A stretch of DNA of 64,000 bases from Halobacteriales archaeon YIM A00010 (GTDB lineage Archaea > Halobacteriota > Halobacteria > Halobacteriales > Haloarculaceae), in assembly GCA_025041175.1 (NCBI GenBank), contig JAKCFJ010000004.1, positions 186,001 through 250,000 of the forward strand. Direction: 5' to 3'. This document shows, piece by piece, positions 22,878 to 63,743 of this stretch (the stretch's first letter is position 1; each line of letters starts with the position of its first letter). The translations under genes were made by a program, and so were the position numbers. The notes under the pieces were generated by a model. It had not been told where the DNA came from. It did not search any database and saw only the letters and a list, made by a program, of their open reading frames with translations.

Positions 22878-25049
22878 ATGACATCAGATGGTTCAGAACT
22901 CGGCCTTCTTTCAGATTCGTCACTTGAAGATCCGGAAGAGGATCAGTTAGGATATGCCGATTTCGCTAAGAATCTGTCCAAGACAATCGAGACCCGTATC
23001 CCACGGCAGGACTTTGTGGTCGGGATCTATGGACCATGGGGGTCGGGAAAGAGCACGATTTTAAATTTCATCGAGTATTATCTCAAGGAGCAGGATGAGC
23101 CACCTCTGATAATCCGCTTCAATCCATGGTGGTTCTCCGGTCAGGCGGACCTCATCAAAAAATTCTTCGAGCAGTTGGAAGCGGGACTAGGTGCAGATGA
23201 CCGGTTCGATGATATCCGCAACAAACTGTCGAACTTTGCATCGTCGTTATCCAATATACCGATATCGGCGGGAACCGGTGTCCCAGCAGAACCACTCTTG
23301 GCAATAATTGGAGAAGACCTAGCGACAGAGAGTGAGGATCTTGACGGTCTGAAGGAGGAGATCTCGCAAGAGCTCGGAGACGCCAACCGGCGGATTGTGA
23401 TTATGATCGACGATATCGATCGTCTCACCCAAGATGAAATAAATCAGATGTTTCGATTGGTCAAAAGTGTAGGGGATTTCCCAAACATCACATACATATT
23501 GGCGTTCGACCAAGAAGTCGTAATCAATGCATTAGGAGGCGAACAAGGGGCTTATAGCGGGGGAGAATATCTAGACAAAATCATCCAGCTACCAAAACAC
23601 GTACCGATTCCCGAAGAGGGAGCGATAGACCGATTCTTCACGACACGGCTTGATCGATTACTGCACGAAACCGACCCTATCTTCGAGCCGCAGCATTGGC
23701 AGACCGTATACCAGCAAGGGATCCTACCCACACTGCAAACGCCACGGGATGCGATTCGTCTCTGTAACGCGGTCGAAACCAGCTTCACTTCGTTGGAAGA
23801 AAACATCAACTTTGTTGACCTGGTTGCGATTGAGACGCTCCGTGTGTTCTACCGAGATGTCTACGAAGCAATTCGAAGTTCCCCTGGTTGTTTCGTGAAT
23901 AATAGGACGTATCGTTCAAGGCGATGTGAAGACGGTGAGGACTATACTACCTTCTTAGATAAGACGCTATCAGATAGTGCTGAGACAGAACTAGCGAAGG
24001 AGTTACTTTCCTATCTCTTTCCACGGGTCGGCGAGCAATTCAGGCAGATACGACATTATCGAGAGAACAGGAATACATTTCGAAAACGGCGGCGGATCTG
24101 CCATCCCGATATGTTCCTCTTCTATTTTCGTGAAATGGTTCCGCGCGGTGAGCTCAGTGCCACCGAACTCGATAACGTCCTAGCGACAACCAAGGATGCA
24201 GAGGCATTAGCGGAGGAGCTGTATCGATTAACCAATGAGCAAGGGAAAGCAGACCGATCAAAAGCCAACACGTTCCTCCAACAATTCTCTGAGCATCTCG
24301 ATGACCTTTCAGACGAGGAAGCTGATGAAGTCATCTCCGCAGTGTTCAAAGTGGGAGACGAGCTCTGTTCAGTTGATCCCTCCCAGAGCATGTTAGACAA
24401 CGGGAGCAGGCGATATCTCTCCTCTATCCAGCTGGAGCTATTACGACAGATAGACGAAGACGACCGTTTCCCACTCCTTCAGGAGGCAATTGCTAACGGA
24501 AACTCGCCGTATCTCGCCAGTCACATCATCGGTATACTAATGCAGGAACATGGCGAGTATGGAGCGGACGGTATCGAAAAAGACCGGCGGCTGATTGAGT
24601 ATGAAAAAATCGAGCAGTTGAAAGAAGTCGCAGTTGAGAAAATTGCTGAAACAGCAGACATCGGTAAACTCTTGGCGACACCACATATGGATTCTGTCCT
24701 GGGACGTTGGCAGGAATGGTCAGATACAGACCATCCACAGGAATGGGCCGAAAAGTCAACACAATCAGACAATGACTTGTTACAGTTCGTGAATCAGTTT
24801 ATCCGGCAAGGGAGTTATTCCTCAGCCTCTGAAAGTGGTACTATCGAGTACATCGATCCGCGATGGCTTGAGCCGTTCCTGAATTACTCGACTGCTGAAG
24901 ACCGACTCACGGAATTAGATAAGAGTAGAATAGAAGAGTGGGAAGCTCATACCATTGAAGTATTTGAGCAGGGTATCGAGTTCTTAGAAGACGGTGATGA
25001 TCCAGGGGAGTTCGAAACATGGAGTTTGTCCCGACACTCACTTGACTAA
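22878..25049 (+). CDS. KAP-family P-loop NTPase, possible defence protein
   Basis: A 723-residue KAP (Kidins220/ARMS-PifA) NTPase. Walker A is FVVGIYGPWGSGKSTILNF (about residues 47-65), the family-specific IIRFNPWWFSGQADLIKKF follows at about 76-94, and Walker B is RRIVIMIDDIDRLTQDEINQ. A conserved sensor-like stretch TLQTPRDAIRLCNAVE lies near 285. KAP proteins usually carry membrane helices inside the NTPase domain; here that place has only a weakly hydrophobic stretch, so the protein looks soluble. The C-terminal 350 residues are helical and unassigned. Relatives include phage-exclusion PifA of plasmid F, which makes a defence role plausible. It stands alone with lower GC than its neighbours. 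Confidence 0.8.
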   Translation: MTSDGSELGLLSDSSLEDPEEDQLGYADFAKNLSKTIETRIPRQDFVVGIYGPWGSGKSTILNFIEYYLKEQDEPPLIIRFNPWWFSGQADLIKKFFEQLEAGLGADDRFDDIRNKLSNFASSLSNIPISAGTGVPAEPLLAIIGEDLATESEDLDGLKEEISQELGDANRRIVIMIDDIDRLTQDEINQMFRLVKSVGDFPNITYILAFDQEVVINALGGEQGAYSGGEYLDKIIQLPKHVPIPEEGAIDRFFTTRLDRLLHETDPIFEPQHWQTVYQQGILPTLQTPRDAIRLCNAVETSFTSLEENINFVDLVAIETLRVFYRDVYEAIRSSPGCFVNNRTYRSRRCEDGEDYTTFLDKTLSDSAETELAKELLSYLFPRVGEQFRQIRHYRENRNTFRKRRRICHPDMFLFYFREMVPRGELSATELDNVLATTKDAEALAEELYRLTNEQGKADRSKANTFLQQFSEHLDDLSDEEADEVISAVFKVGDELCSVDPSQSMLDNGSRRYLSSIQLELLRQIDEDDRFPLLQEAIANGNSPYLASHIIGILMQEHGEYGADGIEKDRRLIEYEKIEQLKEVAVEKIAETADIGKLLATPHMDSVLGRWQEWSDTDHPQEWAEKSTQSDNDLLQFVNQFIRQGSYSSASESGTIEYIDPRWLEPFLNYSTAEDRLTELDKSRIEEWEAHTIEVFEQGIEFLEDGDDPGEFETWSLSRHSLD

Positions 25050-27569: not shown

Positions 27570-28031
27570 ATGCCCGTAGATCTTAGAACACACACGCCGG
27601 ACGACTCGATCAACGTGCGTCCCGGTACCAACGAGGCAGCAATCCTAGAGTTGCTGTACACCGCCCCTCATCTCGGGTACTCTCCCGCCGAGATCAGGGA
27701 CCAGATCGATATCCCCGCTGGCAGTGTCTCGACCACGCTCACGCGACTGCTAGAGAAGGGGTATATCGGGAAAACGTCGGATGGACTCTACCACGGATTG
27801 GACGATTCCCCGCATATCCGACGCTTCGCGCAGTCGCTCGTGAAGCTCAACCAGATCACGACCACCTATCCGAACGCCGGATTCGACGAAGAATTCGTTG
27901 AGAATGTCGAAGACAGCGGACCCGAACCGATTCCGACGGACCGGCAAGAGGAGATGGAAACCGAACGGAACATGATCGAACCTCCACTCGGTGACGATCT
28001 CGTCGCTGACGATCCCAACCAAGACACGTAA
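27570..28031 (+). CDS. Winged-helix (MarR-like) antitoxin candidate
   Basis: 153 residues. The N-terminal half is a winged helix: NEAAILELLYTAPHLGYSPA, then EIRDQIDIPAGSVSTTLTRL and LEKGYIGKTSDGLYHGLDD, the wing. The C-terminal 60 residues are acidic and disordered-looking, suited to wrapping a toxin. The next gene (28051), on the same strand 19 nt later, is PemK/MazF-like. In haloarchaea such HTH-PemK pairs act as toxin-antitoxin modules; the assignment here rests on gene order and folds. Confidence 0.65.
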   Translation: MPVDLRTHTPDDSINVRPGTNEAAILELLYTAPHLGYSPAEIRDQIDIPAGSVSTTLTRLLEKGYIGKTSDGLYHGLDDSPHIRRFAQSLVKLNQITTTYPNAGFDEEFVENVEDSGPEPIPTDRQEEMETERNMIEPPLGDDLVADDPNQDT

Positions 28032-28050
28032 CTCTCCACTGTTGATTTCT

Positions 28051-28386
28051 ATGGACTACTACCCTCAAGGCAGCTTGATCCGGCTCCCAGACCCGACCGA
28101 CGCGCACAAGTTCCGCTACGCGATCGTCGTTTCAGATGTTAATCGCCCGTCCCTAGAGACGGAGCACACGATCGTTTGTCTTAGCTCACAAAACCACTAC
28201 GCAGCTCCCGTGACGCAACTGCCGTTCAATGGCCTCGAAGAAGGCCGGCTGCGGAAGACAGCGTACATCATGCCGTGGGCCATGTACACGATCCATCCCG
28301 AGACTATTGCCGAGCGGCACGGAATGCTCAACGAAACCGGGATGAATGCCGTTGCGGACGCCATCGAAGGGATGGTACGGCCCTAA
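28051..28386 (+). CDS. PemK/MazF-like toxin candidate
   Basis: A 111-residue SH3-barrel-like protein: MDYYPQGSLIRLPDPTDAHK, then FRYAIVVSDVNRPSLETEHT and ARG-like KTAYIMPWAMYTIHPETIAE. PemK/MazF toxins are sequence-specific ribonucleases; the opening 'G-x-L-I-x-L-P..RYAIVVSD' strand pair is typical. I chose the ATG at 28051 because it directly precedes the barrel. It follows the winged-helix gene by 19 nt and is the likely toxin of the pair. Confidence 0.65.
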   Translation: MDYYPQGSLIRLPDPTDAHKFRYAIVVSDVNRPSLETEHTIVCLSSQNHYAAPVTQLPFNGLEEGRLRKTAYIMPWAMYTIHPETIAERHGMLNETGMNAVADAIEGMVRP

Positions 28387-33329: not shown

Positions 33330-34529
33330 CTATTTTATCGTAAACTTCGTATTATTTGCAATTCTCCAAAACGGGTAGCCATAGGCAGGTCGTCCTTTGA
33401 GACCACTGAGTCCACATCCAGTATACGATCCTGTGTTCTCAACGCCACTCAGAACAGTAACGATATGGTTGCCACTAGAGGTCGGCCACCAGAAGGGCCC
33501 ACCGGAGTCACCTTGCCGGCCATAGTCCGGCATTCCAATCTTTATCGCACTTCCAAACCACTTCATACACGAACCAATCTTAGTAGCTCCACCCCCCTTC
33601 ACATGTGCATCCTGATATCCAGAGACCTTCCCTTGGAATTTCAGCGTTCCCTTCTGTCCCTGAATCGATTCCATCCCATCCTGCGTGGCGTAGCCGTGGA
33701 CTTTAGCTAGCCCATCGTTATGCCAAATGTAGTCACTATACCGCGTCTCCTTATCGTTGATCATCACCCAATCGTGTGTTTTGTGCCCATCGGCACCATG
33801 ACCCAAGGAATCTCCGTGTGTGTCGTTAACCCACCCTGTTCCGATGTGGCACGCATCAGCGACAACGTGATTGGCCGTATAGAGATACTGGCTGTCTCCA
33901 TCTGTTGCTCGACACCCGCTTGTTCCTGTCATATCGCGGCTTGCATCCTGGATTTCGATGCCACCATGGAACGGAAGTGCCGTCACATCATCGTGACAAT
34001 CCACATCAGCAGCGACAAACTCGCCGTTCATCCGTCGAACCTTGATATCCGATCCGACGAGTGCACGTGATTGAGTCACTTGTGTCTGTTCAAGGGCATC
34101 TGGAAGGGTACTAAGTTGATCGTCAGCCGTGTCAGGACGAACAGTAATTTCCGGCTCTGAATAATAGACACCGCCTTCCATCCGGTCCGTCGCACTATAC
34201 GAAATACTATCGACGAACGATTTCTCCCCGAATTGTTTCCAAAGCTGTTCCGTGATGTTTCGTATAGCTTTTTGATGGTTTAACCATCTCTTGGGGACTT
34301 TTTTCGTATGTATTGGTTCCGCTTTGACGCCCCTCCGGGCAGCAACGATGCGAGTGGTACGATCAGCTGTTTTGAAATAGGAGGCATTCCCAAGTCCGAA
34401 CAGGCTAAAAGCCCCTGCTCCAGAGGATTTCAATAGTGAGCGGCGATGAATGGTCACGTCCTGCTTGTTCTCCTGAGATGGTCCCTTTGAATGTAGTCCA
34501 AATTTATCACCTGATCCATTATCAGTCAT
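33330..34529 (-). CDS. Tat-exported trypsin-like serine protease
   Basis: About 399 residues. Near the N-terminus HRRSLLKSSGAGAFSLFGLG is a Tat signal. The chymotrypsin-fold catalytic triad can be placed: His in YLYTANHVVADAC, Asp in KTHDWVMINDKE, and Ser in YGRQGDSGGPFWWP. A propeptide-like region of about 150 residues separates the signal from the protease domain. Extracellular proteases of the S1 family are known in haloarchaea, for processing of or competition for protein. I chose the ATG at 34529 (MTDNGSGDKF); an ATG at 34556 is also possible. The gene is convergent with the membrane protein gene and AT-richer than most of the window. Confidence 0.75.
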   Translation of the reverse strand: MTDNGSGDKFGLHSKGPSQENKQDVTIHRRSLLKSSGAGAFSLFGLGNASYFKTADRTTRIVAARRGVKAEPIHTKKVPKRWLNHQKAIRNITEQLWKQFGEKSFVDSISYSATDRMEGGVYYSEPEITVRPDTADDQLSTLPDALEQTQVTQSRALVGSDIKVRRMNGEFVAADVDCHDDVTALPFHGGIEIQDASRDMTGTSGCRATDGDSQYLYTANHVVADACHIGTGWVNDTHGDSLGHGADGHKTHDWVMINDKETRYSDYIWHNDGLAKVHGYATQDGMESIQGQKGTLKFQGKVSGYQDAHVKGGGATKIGSCMKWFGSAIKIGMPDYGRQGDSGGPFWWPTSSGNHIVTVLSGVENTGSYTGCGLSGLKGRPAYGYPFWRIANNTKFTIK

Positions 34530-34669
34530 ATACATTGTCATTTCATACAACAACATATTATAATTTCTTAATTATTCATATAGTAGTTTATTAATATATT
34601 GTATATAGGTATATACATAACCCAAAGTATTATCAAAGATGGATGCCGCTGCCGAAATACCTCTTCCGG

Positions 34670-35341: not shown

Positions 35342-36439
35342 TTAGGTGATTGGGAACCGAAGCAATGCAGCAACGCCACCAAACGCTTGCTGGAACTGCT
35401 CTCCGCGAGCGAAATCTGATAAAATGATCACCGTTTCTCCTCCTTGCTCAGTCGCTGTCTGTTCGAGCGTCTGGATGCGGTCAACCGAGAGCGTCTCAGA
35501 GACAAGAAGTGTCTCAACTGCACCGTATTGGAGTGCGGTCTCAACGGTGTCGTTTCCATAGGCAACCTGGCCATCCTCATTGCTGAGTTGGGTGAAAAAC
35601 CGATCTAGGCAGTCACGAGCATGCTGGCGCTCAGCATCAAGGATATCGTCGCTGGCTTGCTCAGCGAGCTGCTTGAGTCCTTGTTCAAAGGCGTGATCGA
35701 CGGAGTAGGTACCAAGGAGTCGCTCATGCAGGCGATAATCGAGATACTCACCATCGAGGAAGTCCTTGACCGTGATCGTCGTTCCACCGACTAGCAGTCC
35801 GTCGACCGCTGCCCAGTTAGCATCATCACCGCTATTGTGATCAATGAATAATGTATTAGCGCTTTTGGCGACCCGTTTGAAGAAATCCTGTTTCTGACGT
35901 TTCCGTTTACGGGCGAATCGCTGAGCCGATTGGCCACCTGCTCTGGTCTTTCCCATAACCATGCTCTCCATCGTGCGATGAGAGATGGCGTGATCGCCCC
36001 GGAGTTCGCCTAGGGCCGCACCGCCGCGCTCGATAACGAGCAGGCCGTAGGTATGGTCTGGAGCGAGGAGGTGCTTGATCGGATTGAGGACAAACTCGTT
36101 CGAGCAAGTGTAATATGAGTCAATAATGGAGGCGGGGAGATCATCGAATACGAATTCAGTCATCTCGCCGTCGATTACCCCGGCATACACCACGAGTCCG
36201 TTCTCGGGCGTCTTGGGATAGCGTCGGAGTACTTGTTGGACGCGATTGAGAGCATCTCGAACCCGCTTTCGGGTTTTGTCCGATTTGATATTTTCCGCTT
36301 CGGCGTGCTCTTGGGCAATCCGAGTTCGGACTGACTGCAGGTCTTTGCCAGCAGGAATCGACAATGTGACGAGTTCGGTTCCCTCGCCTTCAGCGTTTGC
36401 TACGGCATCGATGCGAGCCTTGAGTTCGTAGTTTGGCAT
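35342..36439 (-). CDS. Extra aRF1-type peptide chain release factor paralogue
   Basis: 365 residues from the ATG at 36439 (MPNYELKARIDAVANAEGEG). Release factor aRF1/eRF1 reads stop codons and frees the peptide. All three functional motifs are present: NIKS in EAENIKSDKTRKRV, Y-x-C-x3-F in SYYTCSNEFVL (both stop-codon reading), and GGQ in TRAGGQSAQRFARKR (peptidyl-tRNA hydrolysis). Domain 3 is shortened compared with the roughly 410-residue housekeeping aRF1. The overall similarity to the usual haloarchaeal aRF1 is moderate, so this is a second, diverged copy in accessory DNA. It lies downstream of the exonuclease VII genes on the same strand, separated by about 380 nt. Confidence 0.75.
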   Translation of the reverse strand: MPNYELKARIDAVANAEGEGTELVTLSIPAGKDLQSVRTRIAQEHAEAENIKSDKTRKRVRDALNRVQQVLRRYPKTPENGLVVYAGVIDGEMTEFVFDDLPASIIDSYYTCSNEFVLNPIKHLLAPDHTYGLLVIERGGAALGELRGDHAISHRTMESMVMGKTRAGGQSAQRFARKRKRQKQDFFKRVAKSANTLFIDHNSGDDANWAAVDGLLVGGTTITVKDFLDGEYLDYRLHERLLGTYSVDHAFEQGLKQLAEQASDDILDAERQHARDCLDRFFTQLSNEDGQVAYGNDTVETALQYGAVETLLVSETLSVDRIQTLEQTATEQGGETVIILSDFARGEQFQQAFGGVAALLRFPIT

Positions 36440-36815: not shown

Positions 36816-37019
36816 TTAGGGCCGTTCTATGACCTCACCGTCACCAAGAGCTAGTTCATCGTCGAGTTCATCGATGAGTGCCGTGCCTTCCTCGTGGAGT
36901 TCCTTGGCTCGTTCGAGCGAGACCGTGCCATCGTCGAGCTGGTCAATGATGATTTCGAGGCGCTGCTGTTTCTCGGCAATCGATGCGTCCGGAGCTGTGT
37001 GCGTGGTTGATTCAGTCAT
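36816..37019 (-). CDS. xseB: Exonuclease VII small subunit
   Basis: 67 residues. The core QQRLEIIIDQLDDGTVSLER (residues 18-37) and LHEEGTALIDELDDELALGD match the short two-helix XseB fold, with the typical 'L..I...L..G..SLE....L...G..L' spacing. XseB binds the C-terminal helices of XseA and activates the single-strand exonuclease that degrades DNA from either end. It begins 15 nt after the end of xseA on the same strand, forming an operon. Confidence 0.85.
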   Translation of the reverse strand: MTESTTHTAPDASIAEKQQRLEIIIDQLDDGTVSLERAKELHEEGTALIDELDDELALGDGEVIERP

Positions 37020-37034: not shown

Positions 37035-38210
37035 TCACAATACGATATAGCCAACGAGTAACAACACAAGCAAGACGAGGACAGCGAGGGCGATTCGCTG
37101 ACGTCGGCGAGCGAGCGCGACCTCGGCCTGTTCGCGTTCGTGGCGTATCTGCTGTTCGCGGGTTTCATAGGTGTGATCAAGCGTGGTTGCCAAATCGGTG
37201 AGTTCGCTACTCACGTGCTGTTCGTAGGCCTGATCGAGTCGCTGTTGGAGATCGGTTATTTGCTTGCTTACCAGCTGGATATAGGCCGTATCGAGACGCT
37301 CTTGTTGTTGGGTGAGCTGCTCGGTGAGAGCGTCATAGTCCGGAACGATCTGTCCGACCTCCGTAGGGGTCATGACGCGTCGATCAGCCACGTCCTCGGC
37401 GAGCGTCTCGTCAGCCTCATGGCCAATCCCGACGGCAATGGGCGTTGCAGTCCTGTGAATCACGCGACAGAGGGCCGTTGTATTGAACACGCGCAAGTGA
37501 GTGTCGGCCCCACCACCACGCGTGAGAACAATCACGTCAACGCGTGCATTATCATCAAGCGCGCCGATGGCCTGCATCATCGATTGCTCCGCCTCATCTC
37601 CCTGGACGGTCGTGTCCTGGACGACGAGATTCATACCGGGATGGCGATTGTGAATGCTCGTCACCGCATCCTCACAAGCGTCGCTCTCTGCACTGGTGGC
37701 GATCCCAATACACAGAGGGTATTCAGGTAGTGGCTGCTTCGTCGTCGGATCAAGCAGGCCATTCTTTTCGAGCAATTGCTTGTTCTCCTCGTAGGTCTGC
37801 TGATAGTTCCCCTCCCCGACGGCAACAGCATGCTCGACTGTGATCGAGCAATAATTGTTCGGTGTGTCAAACGAAACGTCACCCTTCACGGCGAGTTGCA
37901 TACCGTTCTCGATGTCTGTGTCAATCGACTGGCGGCGATACTGGAAGATCACGCAGCGGAGCGGACAGCCGTTGTGAACGAGGTCGAAGTACGCGTGATC
38001 GTTCGAAGACACGCCATAGCCGGAGACATCACCGACCACGTACTCAAAGCGTTGGAGAGTGCTGGTCTCATCGATGGCCGTCTCGATTTCGTCGGCTACT
38101 GCATCAACAAATGCGATCTCGCCGTCCGTGTCGAGCGTCTCCTGCACCGCTGCCAGTTCCGTCCCGGCCTGGTTGTCATCAGCCGGCGATTCAACACCCA
38201 TTAATTCCAC
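37035..38210 (-). CDS. xseA: Exonuclease VII large subunit with C-terminal membrane helix
   Basis: 391 residues from a GTG at 38210 (an ATG at 38201 is also possible). The N-terminal OB-fold-like part is DVSGYGVSSNDHAYFDLVHN. The nuclease core reads YPLCIGIATSAESDACEDAV, VDVIVLTRGGGADTHLRVFN and TPIAVGIGHEADETLAEDVA followed by RVMTPTEVGQ, the signature blocks of XseA. A long coiled coil follows. The last 22 residues (QRIALAVLVLLVLLLVGYIV) form a transmembrane helix, which is not usual for XseA and suggests membrane attachment. The enzyme would degrade single-stranded DNA with XseB (36816). Confidence 0.85.
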   Translation of the reverse strand: MELMGVESPADDNQAGTELAAVQETLDTDGEIAFVDAVADEIETAIDETSTLQRFEYVVGDVSGYGVSSNDHAYFDLVHNGCPLRCVIFQYRRQSIDTDIENGMQLAVKGDVSFDTPNNYCSITVEHAVAVGEGNYQQTYEENKQLLEKNGLLDPTTKQPLPEYPLCIGIATSAESDACEDAVTSIHNRHPGMNLVVQDTTVQGDEAEQSMMQAIGALDDNARVDVIVLTRGGGADTHLRVFNTTALCRVIHRTATPIAVGIGHEADETLAEDVADRRVMTPTEVGQIVPDYDALTEQLTQQQERLDTAYIQLVSKQITDLQQRLDQAYEQHVSSELTDLATTLDHTYETREQQIRHEREQAEVALARRRQRIALAVLVLLVLLLVGYIVL

Positions 38211-42580: not shown

Positions 42581-42976
42581 CTATTCGTCTCGTAGGTTCG
42601 TGACGTCCATTATGTCGGTAAGAAGGCGAGTTTCAAAATCGCCGTCTGCGACGATGAGTTCATCCCCAGTCGACCGTGCGGTCGCCGCGATCAGTAGGTC
42701 ACGGGCAGCCATCCGCTCGCCATCAGCCATCAACGTGTCCTGCATCCGGCCGGCTTCCAGCGCGATCTGCTCGTTCAGGGCCAGCGCCTGAACACCTCCG
42801 AACTGCTGGCGCACCTCCACGACATCGGTCTGCCCGCTTCCGACCGTCCCATTCACGACCTCGAACACACACAGCGAGGACGTCAGGTACGGTTGACCGC
42901 GGGCCTCAACGGCCGCGACGGTGTCAGGGATCCCTTCCAGCATGTCGATGATGACAGAACTGTCGAGGAACGTCAC
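42581..42976 (-). CDS. vapC: VapC-type PIN-domain toxin
   Basis: 131 residues from a GTG at 42976. PIN-domain acidic residues are placed as TFLDSSVIIDMLEG (first Asp, residue 4), VFEVVNG (Glu), ARDLLIAATARSTG (Asp) and LIVADGDFETRL (Asp). VapC toxins are Mg-dependent ribonucleases that cut tRNA or rRNA. The GTG overlaps the TGA of the upstream antitoxin gene (GTGA), showing translational coupling. Confidence 0.85.
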   Translation of the reverse strand: MTFLDSSVIIDMLEGIPDTVAAVEARGQPYLTSSLCVFEVVNGTVGSGQTDVVEVRQQFGGVQALALNEQIALEAGRMQDTLMADGERMAARDLLIAATARSTGDELIVADGDFETRLLTDIMDVTNLRDE

Positions 42977-43170
42977 CGGTCGAAGCTCTCCCGGGAGCGT
43001 GTTACGGCTGCCCGTGCGCGGTCGGCGTCGTCCTCGCTCCACGCACCGATGGCGATGGGCCGCTCACTCTGCGCGAGGCGGGCGAGGAGCTCATCAAACG
43101 TTTCGTCCTCCTTCTTGAGGGTCTGAAGCATCCGTTTGGTGCCATCAGAGACACGGATGGACGTGCTCAT
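42973..43170 (-). CDS. vapB: VapB-type RHH antitoxin
   Basis: 65 residues from the ATG at 43170. MSTSIRVSDGTKRMLQTLKK and DETFDELLARLAQS form a ribbon-helix-helix with the classic 'I-R-V-S-d..K..L..LK..DETFDELL' antitoxin pattern. The acidic C-terminus would bind and block the toxin. It ends in an overlap with vapC and starts the operon. Confidence 0.85.
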   Translation of the reverse strand: MSTSIRVSDGTKRMLQTLKKEDETFDELLARLAQSERPIAIGAWSEDDADRARAAVTRSRESFDR

Positions 43171-54882: not shown

Positions 54883-55677
54883 CTATACAGGGACGAGACA
54901 TTCCTCGATATCGGGAATTCGTTTCATCTCGAATACGTAGTACGAGGCGTCGGTTTCGTCGAGTACGCGGTCATAGTCCGGAAGTGGTTCGTGGTCGTCG
55001 GACTCGCCATCGTTGTCGTGAAGGTGAATGACGTCGATCCGGTTGTCGAATCGGTCGACGAACGCCCGCCAATCGTGGCCGTTCACCTTCGCGTGGCCAA
55101 CATCGAGCGTGAGACGAAGCCACTCCGGATCTGCATCGATAGTTTCGAGCATCGTCGCGAGGTTTATTGGAGACGTGGTGTATCTTCGCTTCGTCTCCGA
55201 ATGGGGTTGATTCTCCAGACAGAGCGGAACGCCAACCCTCGCGGCGTGTTCTGCACATTCCCGGACCGACTGGACGGCGTTTGCTCTTGCCTTCTCGTGG
55301 ACGCGCTCCGGATATCGACGCGGTACCGAACCGCCATGGACGACAACGGCACCGGCGTTTGCCGCAGCAGCATCATCCAGCGTCTGCTTCACCTGTTCGA
55401 CTGCTGCTCTCCGTGAGGCGTCGTTGAAACTTCCGATGTTCCAGTCGCGGAATGGTGCGTGGAGTGTGAACGAGACGCTGTGTTCGCGCCGAAGTGTGGC
55501 GAGTTCACGCGGGGAAGGGGCAGCCGGGTGAGCGTGAAGATACTCCCGTTTGAGTTCGACGTGGTTCAACCCTCGTTCCGTAAGGTACTCGACGAACTCT
55601 GCGACCGTCTCTTCGAATCGAAGATCCATCGCCGCACCGAGACGGGTCCGATCCTCGGTATCGGGTCCGTCAGTCAT
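54883..55677 (-). CDS. TIM-barrel sugar-phosphate isomerase/AP-endonuclease-2-like, phn-linked
   Basis: 264 residues from the ATG at 55677 (8-nt overlap with the phnM stop). The metal-binding TIM barrel shows as HVELKREYLHAHP, FTLHAPFRDWNIG, VVVHGGSVPRRYP, LCLENQPHSETKRRY and LTLDVGHAKVNGHDW, then DVIHLHDNDGESDDH. These conserve the His and Glu ligands of the xylose-isomerase-like family. Its coupling to phnM suggests it acts on a ribose-phosphate product of the carbon-phosphorus lyase pathway, possibly replacing PhnP or PhnN, which are absent here. The activity is inferred. Confidence 0.7.
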   Translation of the reverse strand: MTDGPDTEDRTRLGAAMDLRFEETVAEFVEYLTERGLNHVELKREYLHAHPAAPSPRELATLRREHSVSFTLHAPFRDWNIGSFNDASRRAAVEQVKQTLDDAAAANAGAVVVHGGSVPRRYPERVHEKARANAVQSVRECAEHAARVGVPLCLENQPHSETKRRYTTSPINLATMLETIDADPEWLRLTLDVGHAKVNGHDWRAFVDRFDNRIDVIHLHDNDGESDDHEPLPDYDRVLDETDASYYVFEMKRIPDIEECLVPV

Positions 55678-56857
55678 CGTGGGCCTCTGCGCGGAACACG
55701 GGCGTTCCCGCGACGATTGCGTGCTCAACGACGGGCGTCGGTTCGGGGTCGACCAGAATCATGTCGGCGCGTGCCCCCGCTTCGATTCGGCCGCGGGCAC
55801 TCAGTCCGACGGCGTCGGCTGGATTCGCGGTCACGCGAGCAACACGAGTTGGGAGTGATTCTCCGGTGTCGACGAACGGTGCGGCGAGGAGTGACGGAGG
55901 GTGGTAGTCGGCGAGGAGGACGTCTGCAGCGTCTGCTTCGATGGCGTCTTCGGTCGCCAGGTTCCCCCATTGACTGCCGCCGCGGACAAGGTTCGGAGCG
56001 CCCATGGCTGTCCACATACCGAGGTCACGGGCTCGCTCTGCGGCTTCGATCGTTATTGGATACTCGCTGAGTCGGATCCCTCGTTCTTCGAGTCGTTCGA
56101 CTTCGACCGGCGTCTCGTCGTCGTGGGACGCGACGACTACCCCTGTTCGGGCCGCGGCGGCGGCGATTCGGTCGATTCGTTCGGAGAGTATTTCTTCCGT
56201 GAGCGTCGTCCGCTCTTCGATGAGTCGTTCCACTTCTTCTGTGGGGTGGTTCGAATCGTTCTCGTAGTACTCTCGGAACTGTTCGACGTCTTGGAACTGA
56301 CCCTTCCCGGGGATATGACTCATCACGGAGACGCACGTCGCCGCCTCCCGGTCAAGGACCTCCTCAACCGCATCGACACAGGATTCATCGGTTATCTCAC
56401 ATCGTGCGTGGATGCGGTGGTCCGCGATGAGCGAGTCATTCGACCGTATGGAGTCGACGAGAGCTGAGGCGAGTTCGGGAGATCGGTTCTCCTCGTGTGC
56501 CTCCTCGAACGCGATGGCGTGGAACTTCGTCGTGATACCCGCACAGATGTTCGAGCGGTCCGCCGTCGCAAGCGCGATCGGTGGCTCGATGTCCGCGTTG
56601 CTTCGTGGGTGGAGGTGGTTCTCGATATCGTCGCCGTGCAGATCGACGATTCCCGGCATGAGTATCCGTCCAGCGGCGTCGATCGTCGTTTCCACATCGG
56701 CGTCGACGCCGAGTTTGCCTTCTTCGATGGCGACGATCTCACCGTCGCGGGCCGCGACGCTCCCACGAATGACCTGAGTGGGCGTCACGACTCGCGCGTC
56801 TTTGACGACGGTCTCGTACGCTCCGTCCTGGCCTCGTCCGCGTTCGACGCTGCTCAT
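55670..56857 (-). CDS. phnM: PhnM, triphosphate-ribosyl diphosphatase
   Basis: 395 residues. PhnM splits pyrophosphate from alpha-D-ribosyl 1-alkylphosphonate 5-triphosphate. The amidohydrolase metal site is seen in GIVDLHGDDIENHLHPR, later VMSHIPGKGQF and VVVASHDDETPVEV, and the end LSARGRIEAGARADMILVDP. The start overlaps the stop of phnL by 4 nt. The downstream TIM-barrel gene overlaps it by 8 nt. Confidence 0.9.
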   Translation of the reverse strand: MSSVERGRGQDGAYETVVKDARVVTPTQVIRGSVAARDGEIVAIEEGKLGVDADVETTIDAAGRILMPGIVDLHGDDIENHLHPRSNADIEPPIALATADRSNICAGITTKFHAIAFEEAHEENRSPELASALVDSIRSNDSLIADHRIHARCEITDESCVDAVEEVLDREAATCVSVMSHIPGKGQFQDVEQFREYYENDSNHPTEEVERLIEERTTLTEEILSERIDRIAAAAARTGVVVASHDDETPVEVERLEERGIRLSEYPITIEAAERARDLGMWTAMGAPNLVRGGSQWGNLATEDAIEADAADVLLADYHPPSLLAAPFVDTGESLPTRVARVTANPADAVGLSARGRIEAGARADMILVDPEPTPVVEHAIVAGTPVFRAEAHDD

Positions 56858-57609
56858 GCGCCGGCTCCCTGGGCCTCGTCGGCCGTCTCAGCCACGTATG
56901 TCTCAACGTCGACGATGCGTCGAAGTCGGGCATCGTCGAGGATGACGACACGATCTGCGACCTGCGAGACGACGTCTCGGTTGTGGAAGACACCAACGAC
57001 CGTCGTTTCGTCGGTGAGGTACCGGTCCAAGAGGTCGATGGCCGCAGCCTTCGTATCGGGGTCGAGCGCACTCGTCGGTTCGTCCAAGAGGAGGAGACGC
57101 GGCCGCGGTGCGATGGCGCGTGCGAGGTTCACCCGCTGGCGCTCGCCGCCGCTGAACGTCGCGGGATACGCGTCGTGTAGCTCCTCTGGAAGACTCAGCT
57201 CGGTCAAGAGATCTCGCGCGACGTCGCGAGCGACCTGCGATTCGATGCCGTCCTCGATCAACGGACGAGTGACGACGTCTATGGCCGGGACGCGAGGAAT
57301 CTCGTCGAGGAACTGCGAGGCGTACCCAATCTCGTCGCCACGGAGCGACAGCATCTCTCGCTCCGAGCAAGACGCGAGGTCGACGATCCCCGCTTCGCTC
57401 TCGAATCGGATCGTCCCTGCAGAGGGATCGTAGGTCCGGTAAAGACACTTTAACAGCGACGACTTGCCGCTGCCGGACTCGCCGACGATGGCGAGAAACT
57501 CACCGTCGTGTACGTCGAAGGAGACGTCATCGAGACCGACGACGCGCTTGCCACCGACGACGTGCATCTCGAACTCTTTTCTGAGGTCCGCTATCTGAAT
57601 GAATGTCAT
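56854..57609 (-). CDS. phnL: PhnL, ABC-type ATPase of the C-P lyase complex
   Basis: 251 residues. Walker A is VGESGSGKSSLLKCLYRTYD, the Q-loop YASQFLDEIPRVPAI, the ABC signature FSGGERQRVNLARAI and Walker B RLLLLDEPTSALDP. PhnL is needed with PhnK for C-P bond cleavage in E. coli; it is not a typical transporter ATPase. It overlaps phnK and phnM by 4 nt each. Confidence 0.9.
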   Translation of the reverse strand: MTFIQIADLRKEFEMHVVGGKRVVGLDDVSFDVHDGEFLAIVGESGSGKSSLLKCLYRTYDPSAGTIRFESEAGIVDLASCSEREMLSLRGDEIGYASQFLDEIPRVPAIDVVTRPLIEDGIESQVARDVARDLLTELSLPEELHDAYPATFSGGERQRVNLARAIAPRPRLLLLDEPTSALDPDTKAAAIDLLDRYLTDETTVVGVFHNRDVVSQVADRVVILDDARLRRIVDVETYVAETADEAQGAGA

Positions 57610-58433
57610 ATGACTGAATTGATGAGAGTCTGGGTGTACTCGTGGCGTGGGTCCTCCATCACGCGGTCGGTGAGGCCCGTCTCGACGACGCGGCCATGGC
57701 GCATGACGACAGTTCGATCAGCCAGCAGCCTGATAACCCCGAGGTCGTGCGAGACGACGATGGTCGCCACGTCTTGCTCGCGCTGGATGCGACGGAACAT
57801 GTCGAGGACGCGAGCCTGCACGCTCACGTCGAGTCCCGTCGTTGGTTCATCTAAGATGACGAGTTCCGGATCGTTTGCGATGGCCTTCGCGATCTGAACG
57901 CGGCGCTGCATCCCACCGCTGTAGGTGCTCGTTGGATCATCCATTCTGTCGGCCGGTACTTCAGTCTCTTCGAACAGGTCACGGACGCGCGTTCGGACGT
58001 CCTCAAAATGCCGCCAACCCGCAGCGAGGAGTGCCTCAGCGACGTTACCACCCCCGGTGAATTCGAGGTTCAGACCGTCTCCGACGTGCTGGTGGACCAT
58101 CCCGACGTGTTCGTTCTGCAAGTCGACTCGTTCCTCGTAGTTTGCGTCAAGGAAGTTGCCGTCGTAGGCGTCGAACGCCACGGTCCCGTCCGTCGCGGCC
58201 AAGTCGAGTGCGAGCATCTCGGCCAAGCTGGACTTACCCGAACCGGACTCGCCGACGATACCGAGGACCTCGCCGGATTCGACCGAGAGGGTAACGTCCG
58301 CACACCCGACCACCATCCCGCACTCAGGACAGCGGTTCCGTCCGTGTTCCGCGCCAGTGCGTTCGACGCAGCGACCGCACGGTTCGACGTCACCATAGAA
58401 CCGAGTGACGTTCTCGGCGTCAAGGAGACTCAC
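57606..58433 (-). CDS. phnK: PhnK, ABC-type ATPase of the C-P lyase complex
   Basis: 275 residues. Near the N-terminus there is an extra Cys-rich loop (EPCGRCVERTGAEHGRNRCP, then ECGMVVGCADV), an insertion seen in haloarchaeal PhnK that may bind zinc. Walker A is VGESGSGKSSLAEMLALDLA, the signature YSGGMQRRVQIAKAI and Walker B LVILDEPTTGLDVS. PhnK docks on the PhnGHIJ core. The gene overlaps phnJ and phnL by 4 nt each. Confidence 0.9.
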   Translation of the reverse strand: MSLLDAENVTRFYGDVEPCGRCVERTGAEHGRNRCPECGMVVGCADVTLSVESGEVLGIVGESGSGKSSLAEMLALDLAATDGTVAFDAYDGNFLDANYEERVDLQNEHVGMVHQHVGDGLNLEFTGGGNVAEALLAAGWRHFEDVRTRVRDLFEETEVPADRMDDPTSTYSGGMQRRVQIAKAIANDPELVILDEPTTGLDVSVQARVLDMFRRIQREQDVATIVVSHDLGVIRLLADRTVVMRHGRVVETGLTDRVMEDPRHEYTQTLINSVI

Positions 58434-59515
58434 GCCTCATCACCTCCCTCGGTCACGCTGGAGTTGCCATTATCCAGAACAGTTTCGCGGCGCGCGTCGT
58501 CGACCAGCGGGTCCGGCGTCCCTGGTCCCCACGCCACCGTCTCGTCGTCGAGATGGTGGGATTTCGACAGGGTCGGATCCTCAATGCGCTTCTCACAGAA
58601 CGAAGCGTCATTACATGCATAGCGCGTGACACCATCCTCGTCGGTCACTTCGGTCAGATACGTATCCGTAGATGCACATCGATGACACCGTTTGCCGTCG
58701 AACCGTTCGACCTGGAACTGACGGTCCTCGAACGCGAGCGGTTCGACGTCGGTGTGCGGCGGGACGGCGTAGATGCGTGCCTCTCGTCCGGCGGCGAACA
58801 GGAACAGTGAGTCGGCGTCGTTCAGTTTGCTCGTGTCCCATCGAGGGATGGGTGAGGGGTCCATCAGGTACCTGTCGTGGACCATCACTGGGTAGCGAGC
58901 CGAAATCTGAATCTCGCCCCACTCGACGACGTTCTCATAGAGTGCGACCCACATCTTGGAGTAATTCTTGTGGGCATGGCGTCGGCGGTTGGCGTCGTCA
59001 CTGCCGTCGACGCGTCTGAGCGGATCGGTCGTCGGCACCTGCAGGACGAGAATCTGGTCGTCCGTTAATACCTCTTCGGGGATGCGGTGTCGCGTCTGAA
59101 TCACGGAGGCGTCTGTCGTGTCCGTGGTCGTCTCTACGTCGGCCGTCGTCTCTGCGAGGCGGCGGATGTTGGCAGCATTGATGCTCTCATCGCTTCCCTG
59201 GTCGATGACTTTGAACGTATCCTCGGGACCGAGAAGCGACAACGTCGTCTGGATGCCGCCGGTCCCCCAGCCGCGTGCGAGTGGCATCTCCCGAGAGGCG
59301 AACGGAACTTGATGACCAGGCAATGCGATGGCGTTCAGTACGCCGCGTCGAACTTCGCGTTTCGTGTGTTCGTCGAGGTAAGCGTAGTTGTAGCCCGCGA
59401 TTCCGGCCTCGGTCTCGGAGAGGAGGTCCGAGACTGCTCGCGGTTCGTCCGCGACAGTGGCGAGGCCACCGTCGGTCGTCGCTGCCATCTCTTCGTGGTC
59501 AGGGTCGTCAGTCAT
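58430..59515 (-). CDS. phnJ: PhnJ, carbon-phosphorus lyase (radical SAM)
   Basis: 361 residues. PhnJ cuts the C-P bond with a [4Fe-4S] cluster and S-adenosylmethionine. The cluster ligands appear as RCHRCASTDTYLTEV, RYACNDASFCEKR: Cys-x2-Cys, then about 20 residues, then Cys-x5-Cys. The conserved GYNYAYLDEHTKREVRRGVL start and the LPGHQVPFASREMPLARGWG block are the family hallmarks. It overlaps phnI by 8 nt. Confidence 0.95.
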   Translation of the reverse strand: MTDDPDHEEMAATTDGGLATVADEPRAVSDLLSETEAGIAGYNYAYLDEHTKREVRRGVLNAIALPGHQVPFASREMPLARGWGTGGIQTTLSLLGPEDTFKVIDQGSDESINAANIRRLAETTADVETTTDTTDASVIQTRHRIPEEVLTDDQILVLQVPTTDPLRRVDGSDDANRRRHAHKNYSKMWVALYENVVEWGEIQISARYPVMVHDRYLMDPSPIPRWDTSKLNDADSLFLFAAGREARIYAVPPHTDVEPLAFEDRQFQVERFDGKRCHRCASTDTYLTEVTDEDGVTRYACNDASFCEKRIEDPTLSKSHHLDDETVAWGPGTPDPLVDDARRETVLDNGNSSVTEGGDEA

Positions 59516-60632
59516 TGTCGGTCACCGTCGCGTCTGGCTCTGGCGTTGATCGGTCGGTCGAGGCGTCTCCTTCCGGGCGTTCGACGTTGGTCAGTCCACG
59601 GCGTTCTCGAATCGTGCGGACGCGGTCGAGGATGCTCTGGAAGGTGACGTAGTGCGGGAGTTTCAGATGTTCGATGAAACCGAACGAATCGATTCCGTCC
59701 ACCGTATCGAGGACAAACTCGGCGTCTTCGGCCGGTTCGTCGCCGTCGAGTTGGATGGAGGCGTCGAGGATGGTCATCGAGATGGCCTTGCGCTCGTTTC
59801 GACCGAAGACGAGCCCGTAGCCAAAGGCGAACTGCGGATCATCCCGTTTCGCGAACACGGGGACGACGCTCTCTGATTCGGTTACCTCGACACTCGTCAC
59901 CTCGACGGCGTCGCCAGTGTAGGGGTGCTCGATTTCGACGGGGAGTTCACCCACTCGAACTTCACCGAGGGTCGGGTGGACCTGTCCGTAGCCACGGAGT
60001 GCGCTGTAAGCGAGTGCGGTCATCGCGCCTGTCTCGCCGCGAGCGAGTTCTTGAAGAACCGCATCGCGGGAGGCGGGGAACATCACCGGGTCGCGCGTCG
60101 TATCGAACGCCTCGTCCGTCTCGGCATCGGGGTCGGCGACCAATCCCTCCTCTCTGAGTAGTTCCATCACGTTCCGAAGTGATTCGGGCTTCTCGTCTGC
60201 GAGCTCCCACTCCTCGGTCGGGTCGGTGTCGTCGAAGTCGAAGTCGAGGAGTCGTTGCGTGTAGTCTTTCGTCGCTCCGAGTATTTGTCCACCCGGGACG
60301 TCCTTGTACGCCGGTGAAACGCGACGAGTAGCGAACATACGGTCGGGATCCGCTGGAACCGTCTCGTCGAAGCGTTCGAGCGTCGACCGGTACGCACGCA
60401 GGAGGAACGACGCCTCGGCCGCGTCTCCCTGTGCCTGCTTTATCGCACGCGCAGCAAGTTTCGGTGCATAAAGCCCACCTTCACTCATCACTTGACCGAC
60501 CAACCGCCCGAACTGGGACTCGACCTGTTCGACAGTGACGTTCGGTTCTTCACCTTCGATGCGGCCTTTCTCAAAGAGTTGCTCGGACTTCCGGATAACG
60601 TCCTTACCAGCCTTCACGGCGACGTACCCCAT
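59508..60632 (-). CDS. phnI: PhnI, C-P lyase core subunit
   Basis: 374 residues. PhnI transfers adenine-released ribose triphosphate to the phosphonate, as part of the PhnGHIJ complex. The start MGYVAVKAGKDVIRKSEQLF is the family signature. Conserved parts are RLVGQVMSEGGLYAPKLAAR, AEASFLLRAYRSTLERFDET, DPVMFPASRDAVLQELARGE and YGLVFGRNERKAISMTILDA. It abuts phnH without overlap and overlaps phnJ by 8 nt. Confidence 0.95.
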   Translation of the reverse strand: MGYVAVKAGKDVIRKSEQLFEKGRIEGEEPNVTVEQVESQFGRLVGQVMSEGGLYAPKLAARAIKQAQGDAAEASFLLRAYRSTLERFDETVPADPDRMFATRRVSPAYKDVPGGQILGATKDYTQRLLDFDFDDTDPTEEWELADEKPESLRNVMELLREEGLVADPDAETDEAFDTTRDPVMFPASRDAVLQELARGETGAMTALAYSALRGYGQVHPTLGEVRVGELPVEIEHPYTGDAVEVTSVEVTESESVVPVFAKRDDPQFAFGYGLVFGRNERKAISMTILDASIQLDGDEPAEDAEFVLDTVDGIDSFGFIEHLKLPHYVTFQSILDRVRTIRERRGLTNVERPEGDASTDRSTPEPDATVTDND

Positions 60633-61199
60633 CTACGCCACCTCCTCGGCGAGGGCGACGTCGACCGCCCGAGGCAGTGAAACGACACGATCGGCGGCGG
60701 TGAAGTAAACGTCGACGCCTCGCGGATACGTCGACTGCGCCTCCTTAATAGCCGCCACCTCGTCGGATGAGATGTCGACGCCGAACGTCCGCGTCCCTTG
60801 GACGCCTGGTCCGGAGACGGCGAGTTCGAGGCAGTCGTTCTCGGAAGGCGCGTCGGTCACGCGCGTGACTGCGTAGACGATGGTCGCACCCTCACTGGGT
60901 TCTTTCAGCGTCCCACGTTTGGCGTCGGTGACGCGTCCGTCGGTGGGGCCGTCGACGAGGACCACGTCGGCCGTTTCGAAAGGTGCCTCGTCGAGTCGGC
61001 TCTCGTGTTCGAGCGCGGTCAGTACGGTTTCGTCGTCGCCACAGAACGTTACCTCGTGGTCGACGAGCGTAGCGATCACCGCGTGTGCAGCGGGTTCGTG
61101 AGGTATCGTCTGGACGGTACCCGGTTGACTCGCGGCGTCCACGAGCGACCGGAACGTCTCATGGGTGTCGTGTACTGGATCCATTTCGAGCGCCTTCAT
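60633..61199 (-). CDS. phnH: PhnH, C-P lyase core subunit
   Basis: 188 residues from the ATG at 61199 (MKALEMDPVHDTHETFRSLV), overlapping phnG by 4 nt. PhnH is a core subunit of PhnGHIJ. Conserved stretches are HDTHETFRSLVDAASQPGTV, PHEPAAHAVIATLVDHEVTF and YPRGVDVYFTAADRVVSLPR. An upstream ATG at 61253 would lie inside phnG, so I rejected it. Confidence 0.9.
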   Translation of the reverse strand: MKALEMDPVHDTHETFRSLVDAASQPGTVQTIPHEPAAHAVIATLVDHEVTFCGDDETVLTALEHESRLDEAPFETADVVLVDGPTDGRVTDAKRGTLKEPSEGATIVYAVTRVTDAPSENDCLELAVSGPGVQGTRTFGVDISSDEVAAIKEAQSTYPRGVDVYFTAADRVVSLPRAVDVALAEEVA

Positions 61200-61639
61200 T
61201 CGTCGTCCTCCATCGTCTCGAACGCGACAGTCGTCGCGCGGCTCTCGTTCCACTGCCGACGGCGTCGTTCCTCGCGGTCGGCCGCTGCATCCGCCAACGT
61301 CTCGCAGATTCGGGACGTCTCGTCGTGGTTCGCGGCTACTGCCGCATCGACGATTGCACCGGAAACAGCCTTCGGCTCCGCCTTTCCGGGAACCATCGCG
61401 AATCCACGCGCCTCTGCGTACTCGACTTCGGCTGTGGTCACGAGCACCTCACCGAGGTTGAACGGGCGTCGTTCGACCGGCTCTCGGACCTGTTGCATCA
61501 AGAGTTGGGACTTCGGTTCTTGGAGGATGCGGACCGGGGTCTCCCCGTCTAGCAGGTCGTCTGCGAGTCGGACCAGTGTGTCGCTGCCACACGCCGCTAT
61601 CAACTCGAACCTGTCTGACCTATCGTGTAGTTCGGCCAT
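61196..61639 (-). CDS. phnG: PhnG, C-P lyase core subunit
   Basis: 147 residues, first gene of the minus-strand phn operon. PhnG is a core subunit. Family blocks: QLLMQQVREPVERRPFNLGE, VLVTTAEVEYAEARGFAMVP and GAIVDAAVAANHDETSRICE. The gene starts at 61639, 276 nt from the divergent phnD start. Confidence 0.9.
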   Translation of the reverse strand: MAELHDRSDRFELIAACGSDTLVRLADDLLDGETPVRILQEPKSQLLMQQVREPVERRPFNLGEVLVTTAEVEYAEARGFAMVPGKAEPKAVSGAIVDAAVAANHDETSRICETLADAAADREERRRRQWNESRATTVAFETMEDDE

Positions 61640-61915
61640 GCACTCGGTTCAGGAACACCGAAGAGACTGCATAAGGGTTCGCTGGGTACTCTCTTTCCCT
61701 CAGGTCGGCAGGTGGTCGAACAGCCGGTCTCCGAGCGGGCGTACGGACGAGTATGGACGTTGTTCTGTGATGTACGATACAGCGCAGTCTGTATTCAGTA
61801 CGTACGTATCCAATATGTTTCGGTGACTGAGGGGCAGAGAACACACCTCGGTCGGAGACCGAACGTAGTATACCCAGATAACCGTTAATGGGTGAACTCG
61901 CTTTCGCCCTCGTGT
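61640..61915. promoter_or_regulatory. Divergent phnG/phnD promoter region
   Basis: The 276-bp space separates the two phn transcripts. It holds AT-rich runs (GATGTACGATACAGC, ATTCAGTACGTACGTATCCAATATG) around 61768-61822 that may contain TATA elements and a regulator site; ACGTACGT at about 61800 is palindromic. No PHO-box-like repeat could be defined by eye. Confidence 0.5.
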
Positions 61916-62932: not shown

Positions 62933-62957
62933 CGACCGAACAACTAGTCTTATCACA

Positions 62958-63743
62958 ATGAGTACACTCACCATCGAGAACCTCACGAAAGAGTACGGCG
63001 ACGTGACGGCCGTCAGCGACGTCTCGTTCGAGATAGAGGATGAATTCGTTGTGCTCCTTGGAGAATCCGGAGCCGGGAAGTCGACGCTGCTTCGATGTAT
63101 CAACGGTCTCACCGACCCGACGGACGGTGACGTCTACCTCGACGGCAAACCGGTCTCGGGCTCACAGCCGTCCATCGGAATGATATTTCAACAGCATAAC
63201 CTCGTTGAAGGCGTTTCGGCGTACCTCAACTCGCTCACTGGTTCTCTCGAACGCACGTCGTTCGTGGACAGTCTCTTCCAGTGGAACGACAGAGCCGACA
63301 AACGCAAGGCCCTCGAAGCGCTCCAGACCGTTGGTCTGCTCGACGAAGCGCATCAGCGCGTCTCTCAGATGAGCGGTGGGCAACAGCAGCGCGTCGGTAT
63401 CGCTCGTGCGCTCGTTCAGGACCCGTCTCTGGTGCTCGCAGACGAACCAGTCGCCAGCCTCGATCCATCAAGCGCCGAGAGTGTTATGGGATATCTGAAG
63501 AAAGCCGCGAGGGCCCATCAGGTTACGGCGCTCGTCAGTCTGCATCAGGTCAACATCGCCGCTCACTTCGGCGAGCGATTCATTGGACTGCGCGACGGTT
63601 GGCTCCTTTTCGACGTCGAACAGGACGAGCTGACGCCCGACCTCATCGACGACCTCTACGGCGACGTCGAGACGGTCGGACTCACCGAGCAACACGCGGC
63701 CGATCCGGCGAGTGAGAGACCCGAAGCGAGGGTCGGACGGTGA
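62958..63743 (+). CDS. phnC: PhnC, phosphonate ABC transporter ATPase
   Basis: 261 residues. Walker A is LLGESGAGKSTLLRCINGLT, Q-loop IGMIFQQHNLVEGVSAYLN, signature MSGGQQQRVGIARALVQDP and Walker B LVLADEPVASLDPSS. It energises phosphonate uptake through PhnE. It begins 25 nt after phnD and its stop overlaps the GTG start of phnE by 3 nt. Confidence 0.9.
   Translation: MSTLTIENLTKEYGDVTAVSDVSFEIEDEFVVLLGESGAGKSTLLRCINGLTDPTDGDVYLDGKPVSGSQPSIGMIFQQHNLVEGVSAYLNSLTGSLERTSFVDSLFQWNDRADKRKALEALQTVGLLDEAHQRVSQMSGGQQQRVGIARALVQDPSLVLADEPVASLDPSSAESVMGYLKKAARAHQVTALVSLHQVNIAAHFGERFIGLRDGWLLFDVEQDELTPDLIDDLYGDVETVGLTEQHAADPASERPEARVGR

What the first reader, a model, noticed from the sequence alone, without database searches (positions are those of the whole stretch)
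35342..36439. Second aRF1 with all stop-reading and GGQ motifs in accessory DNA
Seen: NIKS, Y-x-C-x3-F and GGQ are all intact in a diverged 365-residue protein that lies downstream of xseAB. Known: archaea need one aRF1; paralogues usually lose one of these motifs (Pelota lacks GGQ). Inference: a working alternative release factor, perhaps for stress, ribosome rescue, or resistance to a toxin or virus that attacks termination.
Basis: partly seen in the sequence, partly recalled or inferred. Interest (0 to 1): 0.65.

Follow-up and report, generated by a model that had tools for sequence, protein, structure and literature searches.

The report
Plasmid-borne spare archaeal release factor
A salt-loving archaeon carries, on a large plasmid-like contig, a second complete version of the protein that ends protein synthesis; its relatives on many haloarchaeal plasmids form an undescribed family whose other branch has lost stop-codon reading and sometimes the catalytic motif too.

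Summary
Confirmed, with one correction: the gene is on the minus strand (36439 to 35342; 365 aa). It carries GT, E-x5-NIKS, Y-x-C-x3-F and GGQ, and passes NCBIfam's aRF-1 cut-off (314 vs 234.7 bits). The genome has a separate, intact housekeeping aRF1 (37% identity) and a Pelota on the C1 contig; this copy lies on an 813-kb contig. It is not unique: 83 hits of this paralogue type were found among 391 Halobacteria genomes; aligned members lack the housekeeping zinc mini-domain. Of these, 18 keep every decoding motif plus GGQ, 46 lost the decoding motifs but keep GGQ, and 19 lost GGQ too; the last two groups nest within the clade. Checked PLSDB plasmid copies are the intact type, and sampled pairs are under purifying selection (dN/dS 0.08-0.20). 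Best reading: a working, mobile, stop-codon-reading alternative release factor, probably termination insurance; its trigger is unknown. A codon-independent rescue or hibernation role fits the derived branch, not this gene. xseAB is a poorly conserved neighbour. Side finding: many plasmid copies sit beside an undescribed, widespread, about 640-nt structured-RNA candidate.

The parts
35342..36439 (-). aRF1 paralogue, 365 aa (ATG at 36439, TAA at 35344-35342)
   Evidence: homologue N-termini align with this ATG
36377..36382 (-). G20-T21 (GT motif of domain 1)
   Evidence: Alignment with canonical aRF1s
36281..36292 (-). NIKS motif, residues 50-53 (E44 also conserved)
36092..36112 (-). Y-x-C-x3-F motif, residues 110-116 (YTCSNEF)
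35930..35938 (-). GGQ motif, residues 168-170 (in RAGGQSAQRF)
35345..35653 (-). C-terminal domain (residues 263-365), continuous, without the zinc mini-domain insert of the housekeeping aRF1
   Evidence: Alignment; AlphaFold model mean pLDDT 87.8; Foldseek best hit 4af1 archaeal aRF1, E=2.1e-34
36816..37019 (-). XseB-like exonuclease VII small subunit, neighbour only; not judged part of the system
   Evidence: TIGR01280 37.8 bits vs cut-off 35; absent near nearly all relatives
37035..38210 (-). XseA-like exonuclease VII large subunit, neighbour only
   Evidence: TIGR00237 262 bits; common in the family irrespective of this gene (52 of 142 genomes over cut-off)

Best explanation
A mobile, mostly plasmid-borne second class-I release factor. 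Inferred mechanism: as with aRF1, aEF1A delivers it to the ribosomal A site, domain 1 reads the stop codon (GT, E44/NIKS, YxCxxxF), the GGQ loop reaches the peptidyl-transferase centre and hydrolyses peptidyl-tRNA, and ABCE1 recycles the ribosome. It adds to the host's intact aRF1. The most likely use is insurance: termination continues when the host factor or termination is limiting or attacked (translation-targeting toxins, virus, stress). Shown: motifs, predicted fold, separate housekeeping gene, clade, block retention of decoding residues, purifying selection in sampled relatives, plasmid distribution. Inferred: biochemical activity, delivery partner and trigger.
For: Above the curated aRF-1 cut-off. 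46 of 54 columns near-invariant in 66 canonical aRF1s are kept; N domain 82%, M 86%, C 91%. In codon-blind relatives the N domain falls to 47% while M stays at 82%; in GGQ-less ones M falls to 60%. In the survey GT, NIKS-type and YxCxxxF stand together in the 18 hits classed intact (one, L248, reads NT for GT) and are jointly degraded in the other 65. dN/dS 0.08-0.20 in 39 sampled pairs of intact relatives. 13 near-full-length PLSDB hits: 11 checked intact, one frameshifted, one not examined. Paralogues form one clade (100/100) with codon-blind rows nested (100/99). The model matches archaeal aRF1 4af1 and ribosome-bound eRF1. Toxin genes lie within about 3.5 kb in several annotated plasmids: PemK/MazF, Doc, VapC, nucleotidyltransferase/DUF86, weak PIN+RHH.
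Against: No biochemical or expression data. dN/dS was measured on relatives; the window copy has no relative closer than about 55% identity. Frameshifted copies exist (Haladaptatus pallidirubidus; a second copy in HArc-gm2), so the gene can be dispensable. Toxin-gene proximity was not tested against a proper plasmid background. No conserved operon partner points to a pathway.
Confidence: 0.6

Rival explanations
1. It is a codon-independent ribosome rescue or hibernation factor, like Pelota or bacterial Balon, that happens to look like aRF1.
For: Same superfamily; derived members of this very family lost the decoding motifs and in part GGQ, as Balon lacks NIKS and GGQ (PMC10901736); weak similarity to the Rv2629 hibernation-factor model (29 bits vs cut-off 320).
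Against: The codon-reading domain of this copy is nearly as conserved as the catalytic domain (82% vs 86% of near-invariant columns); full NIKS/GT/YxCxxxF; Pelota model far below cut-off (75 vs 177.65).
Confidence: 0.15
2. It is a release factor with altered stop-codon preference, tuning termination at particular codons or for plasmid genes.
For: The decoding loop differs in detail (EAENIKSD vs EASNIKSK in the housekeeping protein); precedent of a second aRF1 in Methanosarcina barkeri discussed for UAG/pyrrolysine (PMC2943090).
Against: AENIKS also occurs in nanohaloarchaeal housekeeping aRF1s; no tRNA gene in the window, and none with a stop-codon anticodon in 21 related loci (ARAGORN on limited stretches); paralogue genes end in TAA (21) or TGA (7) and haloarchaeal aRF1 genes mostly in TAA, so no clear contrast in stop use.
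Confidence: 0.12
3. It is passenger DNA: an old paralogue drifting on plasmids without a selected function.
For: Patchy distribution, frameshifted copies, lower GC3 than the housekeeping gene (0.57 vs 0.77).
Against: dN/dS 0.08-0.20 in relatives, open 365-codon frame, near-complete retention of functional columns.
Confidence: 0.1
4. It works with the adjacent exonuclease VII (XseAB) in one system.
For: Same strand, 376 bp apart in the window; XseA 5.3 kb from the paralogue in G064 and about 14 kb from the frameshifted copy in G062.
Against: XseA/XseB found near only one other paralogue locus in the flanks searched by blastp; XseA is common in the family without the paralogue.
Confidence: 0.03

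Closest known systems
Archaeal housekeeping release factor aRF1 (TIGR03676; structures 4af1, 3agk)
   Same: Three domains, GT/NIKS/YxCxxxF decoding set, GGQ, C-terminal FGGVAALLRF-type motif; above the curated aRF-1 cut-off
   Different: 37% identity to the host's own aRF1; lacks the zinc mini-domain that the host's has (also lacking in A. pernix 3agk and many DPANN aRF1s by length and alignment); accessory and mostly plasmid-borne; additional to the housekeeping gene
Second aRF1 of Methanosarcina barkeri
   Same: An archaeal genome with two aRF1s (PMC2943090)
   Different: There only one appears active in termination and the context is pyrrolysine; its relation to this haloarchaeal family was not tested
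Pelota/Dom34
   Same: Same superfamily, C-terminal domain similarity
   Different: Pelota lacks GGQ and the stop-reading domain; model score far below cut-off
baeRF-1 and VLRF-1 clades (Burroughs and Aravind 2019, PMC6514570), and Balon
   Same: aeRF-1 superfamily members that coexist with a primary release factor; domain 2 also hits acVLRF1 and baeRF_family10 models
   Different: Those models score lower than eRF1_2; this protein keeps both flanking domains and all stop-reading motifs. A word search of that paper gave no hit for 'haloarchaea' or 'aRF1'
PrfH (with RtcB) in bacteria
   Same: An accessory release factor linked to ribosome damage: analogy in role only (PMC9223846)
   Different: Unrelated bacterial RF fold; RtcB association was not tested here

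Membership tests
aRF1 (TIGR03676 / eRF1 Pfam domains) | Score above curated family cut-off | tested here: met
   314 vs 234.7 bits; eRF1_1, eRF1_2, eRF1_3 all above cut-off
aRF1 (TIGR03676 / eRF1 Pfam domains) | Stop-reading motifs (GT, E-x5-NIKS, YxCxxxF) | tested here: met
aRF1 (TIGR03676 / eRF1 Pfam domains) | GGQ catalytic motif | tested here: met
   Residues 168-170
aRF1 (TIGR03676 / eRF1 Pfam domains) | Three-domain aRF1 fold | tested here: met
   AlphaFold mean pLDDT 87.8, pTM 0.66; top Foldseek hit 4af1, E=2.1e-34, TM 0.74
aRF1 (TIGR03676 / eRF1 Pfam domains) | Stop-codon-dependent peptide release | not testable with these tools
   Needs an in vitro release assay
aRF1 housekeeping orthologue | Primary aRF1 of the genome, grouping with haloarchaeal aRF1 | tested here: not met
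   Separate aRF1 on C1; paralogue clade falls outside the haloarchaeal aRF1 clade, though grouping with it is not firmly rejected (AU p=0.053)
Pelota/Dom34 | Score above family cut-off; no GGQ; Sm-like N domain | tested here: not met
   75.2 vs 177.65 bits; GGQ and eRF1_1 present
VLRF-1 / baeRF-1 | Best match to those families | tested here: not met
   acVLRF1 58.6 and baeRF_family10 44.9 bits, below eRF1_2 80.9 on domain 2; both flanking domains present
Balon hibernation factors | Absence of NIKS and GGQ | tested here: not met
   Both present; feature as stated in PMC10901736

The most novel reading that the evidence does not exclude
Haloarchaeal plasmids carry their own fully working stop-codon-reading release factor as counter-defence or termination insurance against toxins, viruses or plasmid-host conflict that hit host termination; elsewhere the same lineage has been turned into codon-blind peptidyl-tRNA hydrolases and then into catalytically dead A-site binders, a stepwise archaeal parallel to the origin of rescue and hibernation factors.
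Probability: 0.3. Interest if true: 0.8.

Novelty: new variant of a known kind. Interest (0 to 1): 0.52.

Why it matters
Archaea are usually described as using one release factor for all stop codons. A plasmid-carried, motif-complete second factor in several haloarchaeal families, with sister proteins that lost decoding and then catalysis, would give a natural series for asking how a termination factor becomes a rescue or hibernation factor, in genetically tractable hosts (Haloferax mediterranei carries one on plasmid pHME132). Automatic annotation calls the plasmid copies prf1/aRF-1, so plasmid and housekeeping genes can be confused.

Tried and rejected
Viral origin or carriage: no hit in phage records and no confirmed relative in IMG/VR (pattern-based scan). 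Suppressor tRNA or recoding context: no tRNA in the window and no stop anticodon in 21 related loci. XseAB as partner: not conserved. Hibernation/stress operon for the derived clade: recurring flanking genes that could be named in sampled loci are transporters, hydrolases, regulators and metabolic genes, with no translation factor. PADLOC: no hit for the release factor. The first genome-contig scan with the single sequence found no relative; the alignment scan did. Haloarchaeal duplication as origin: disfavoured but not rejected; no outgroup outside Halobacteriota and DPANN was used, so the deeper origin is open. One of the 18 'intact' survey hits (L248, G164) carries an in-frame TAA and was not placed in the tree; it may be a different aRF1.

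Full report
Observation. The gene is real but on the minus strand, 36439 to 35342, 365 aa. It matches all three eRF1 domains and exceeds the NCBIfam aRF-1 cut-off. G20-T21, E44, NIKS 50-53, YTCSNEF 110-116 and GGQ 168-170 are present.

Genome context. The window is C4:186001-250000 of a 5.97-Mb, 7-contig genome; C4 is 812,767 bp. A 414-aa housekeeping aRF1 (with zinc mini-domain and all motifs) and a Pelota-like gene are on C1, a 2.86-Mb contig. Family members G063 and G141 correspond to Halomicrobium urmianum and Salinibaculum litoreum by matching plasmid coordinates, which suggests Haloarculaceae. That C4 is a plasmid is inferred from size, not shown. XseAB lies upstream on the same strand with a 376-bp gap; XseA is common in the family (over cut-off in 52 of 142 genomes) and was found by blastp near only one other paralogue in the flanks searched.

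Family. In the family search 17 of 146 genomes carry a full-length paralogue besides aRF1 (counted from the match list). A profile search of 391 Halobacteria genomes separates paralogues (about 327 bits and up, continuous match) from housekeeping aRF1 (about 320 and below, split by the zinc insert). Motif classification of 83 hits gave 18 intact, 46 codon-blind with GGQ, 19 without GGQ. The intact class allowed NIKA and [HQ]IRS variants of NIKS. The other 65 have lost the decoding motifs jointly. One intact-class hit (L248) holds an in-frame TAA and reads NT for GT; it may not belong to the clade.

Phylogeny. With 93 rows (quick) and 45 rows (careful, 1000 ultrafast bootstraps), paralogues form one clade (100/100 in the careful tree), with intact rows, including the window protein, at its base and codon-blind rows in one nested clade (100/99 careful; 98 SH-aLRT quick, there with the GGQ-less rows). 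GGQ was lost in several separate places of the quick tree. The trees were rooted on DPANN aRF1s, so whether the clade is sister to other Halobacteriota aRF1s depends on that root. Joining it with haloarchaeal aRF1 costs 13.7 log units, AU p=0.053: not rejected.

Constraint. Of 54 columns near-invariant in 66 canonical aRF1s, the window protein keeps 46. By domain (N/M/C): window 82/86/91%, intact relatives 83/85/86%, codon-blind 47/82/82%, GGQ-less 46/60/72%. This fits release of constraint on the N domain first and on the M domain later. Pairwise dN/dS in 39 sampled pairs of plasmid-type intact relatives is 0.08-0.20; the window copy itself has no close enough relative for this test.

Distribution. 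tblastn against PLSDB gave 14 records, 13 of them covering most of the query, from Haloferacaceae, Natrialbaceae, Haladaptataceae, Haloarculaceae and others, annotated prf1 where annotated. Eleven were checked as intact, one (H. pallidirubidus) is frameshifted, one (H. alexandrinus) was not examined. No phage record and no IMG/VR contig was confirmed. Some intact copies lie on chromosome-sized contigs (for example Halosimplex aquaticum), so plasmid-borne is the rule, not absolute.

Structure. AlphaFold2 model from window and related loci: mean pLDDT 87.8, pTM 0.66. Foldseek: 4af1 archaeal aRF1 first (E=2.1e-34, TM 0.74), then ribosome-bound eRF1; Balon and Pelota weaker.

Mechanism. By homology it should act as a stop-codon-dependent peptidyl-tRNA hydrolase. 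Its use is inferred. Toxin genes of different families lie within about 3.5 kb of the paralogue in several annotated plasmids but none was annotated in the H. salinisoli stretch, and plasmids carry such genes often; two partial stretches of other plasmid DNA were looked at, which is not a proper background test.

Known work. A second aRF1, apparently inactive, is described for Methanosarcina barkeri (PMC2943090). Burroughs and Aravind (PMC6514570) survey the superfamily; the passages I searched did not mention a haloarchaeal paralogue, but supplements could not be read. Literature searches found no description, within an open-access library only.

Side finding. About 640 nt between a divergent RPA-like gene and prf1 in many plasmid copies (L058:8140-8784) is a conserved element of haloarchaeal plasmids, independent of prf1: 165 PLSDB records matched the 841-nt intergenic query, most over its first three quarters, and 264 of 391 genomes matched a query made of its last part plus the prf1 leader (many hits short and weak). 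On 21 copies a 164-pair RNA structure is formed in 98.2% of cells against 35-47% for slid versions, with 94 cells changed on both sides against 36 in shuffles. The structure was derived from the same alignment, and much of the covariation comes from two allele types, possibly one exchange, so this is a strong candidate, not proof of an RNA. Rfam has no match. It was not found next to the window's gene.

Noticed in passing
L058:8140-8784 (+), Haloprofundus sp. MHR1 plasmid pMHR1-2; copies in L054, L055, L059, L282-L288 and others: About 640-nt conserved element next to RPA-like or TFB genes on many haloarchaeal plasmids; folds as a large structured-RNA candidate with compensatory changes and pairing 5'/3' ends; no Rfam family.
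   Followed up: partly
e.g. L083:7995-9074, L251-L259, L049-L052 paralogue loci: Sister clade of the paralogue, often on chromosome-sized contigs, that lost all stop-reading motifs but mostly keeps GGQ; some lineages lost GGQ as well. Candidate archaeal codon-blind rescue or hibernation factors.
   Followed up: partly
window 22878-25049 (+): 723-aa KAP-family P-loop NTPase with a strong PADLOC match to PifA (E=7.5e-115).
   Followed up: no
window 27570-28386 (+): MarR-like HTH gene overlapping a PemK/MazF-like toxin gene: toxin-antitoxin-like pair 7 kb from the release factor.
   Followed up: no
window 42581-43042 (-): PIN-domain (VapC-like) protein.
   Followed up: no
window 37035-38210 (-): XseA whose C-terminus ends in a hydrophobic, transmembrane-like stretch (IALAVLVLLVLLLVGYIVL) by eye; the Pfam match stops short of the full profile.
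   Followed up: no
window 33330-34556 (-): 408-aa protein with a GDSGGP serine-protease-like motif by eye and no Pfam match.
   Followed up: no
window 54883-63743: Run of genes that read like a phosphonate (C-P lyase, phn) cluster with an ABC transporter; by eye, only the amidohydrolase at 55670-56857 was scanned.
   Followed up: no
L061:10146-10219 and L074:9145-9218: tRNA-Thr (TGT) gene about 80-90 bp downstream of the paralogue in two Haladaptatus loci, perhaps an integration site.
   Followed up: no
L089, L104, L105, L137: Frameshifted paralogue copies: plasmid and two chromosomal sites in Haladaptatus pallidirubidus, and a second copy in Halobacteria archaeon HArc-gm2.
   Followed up: no
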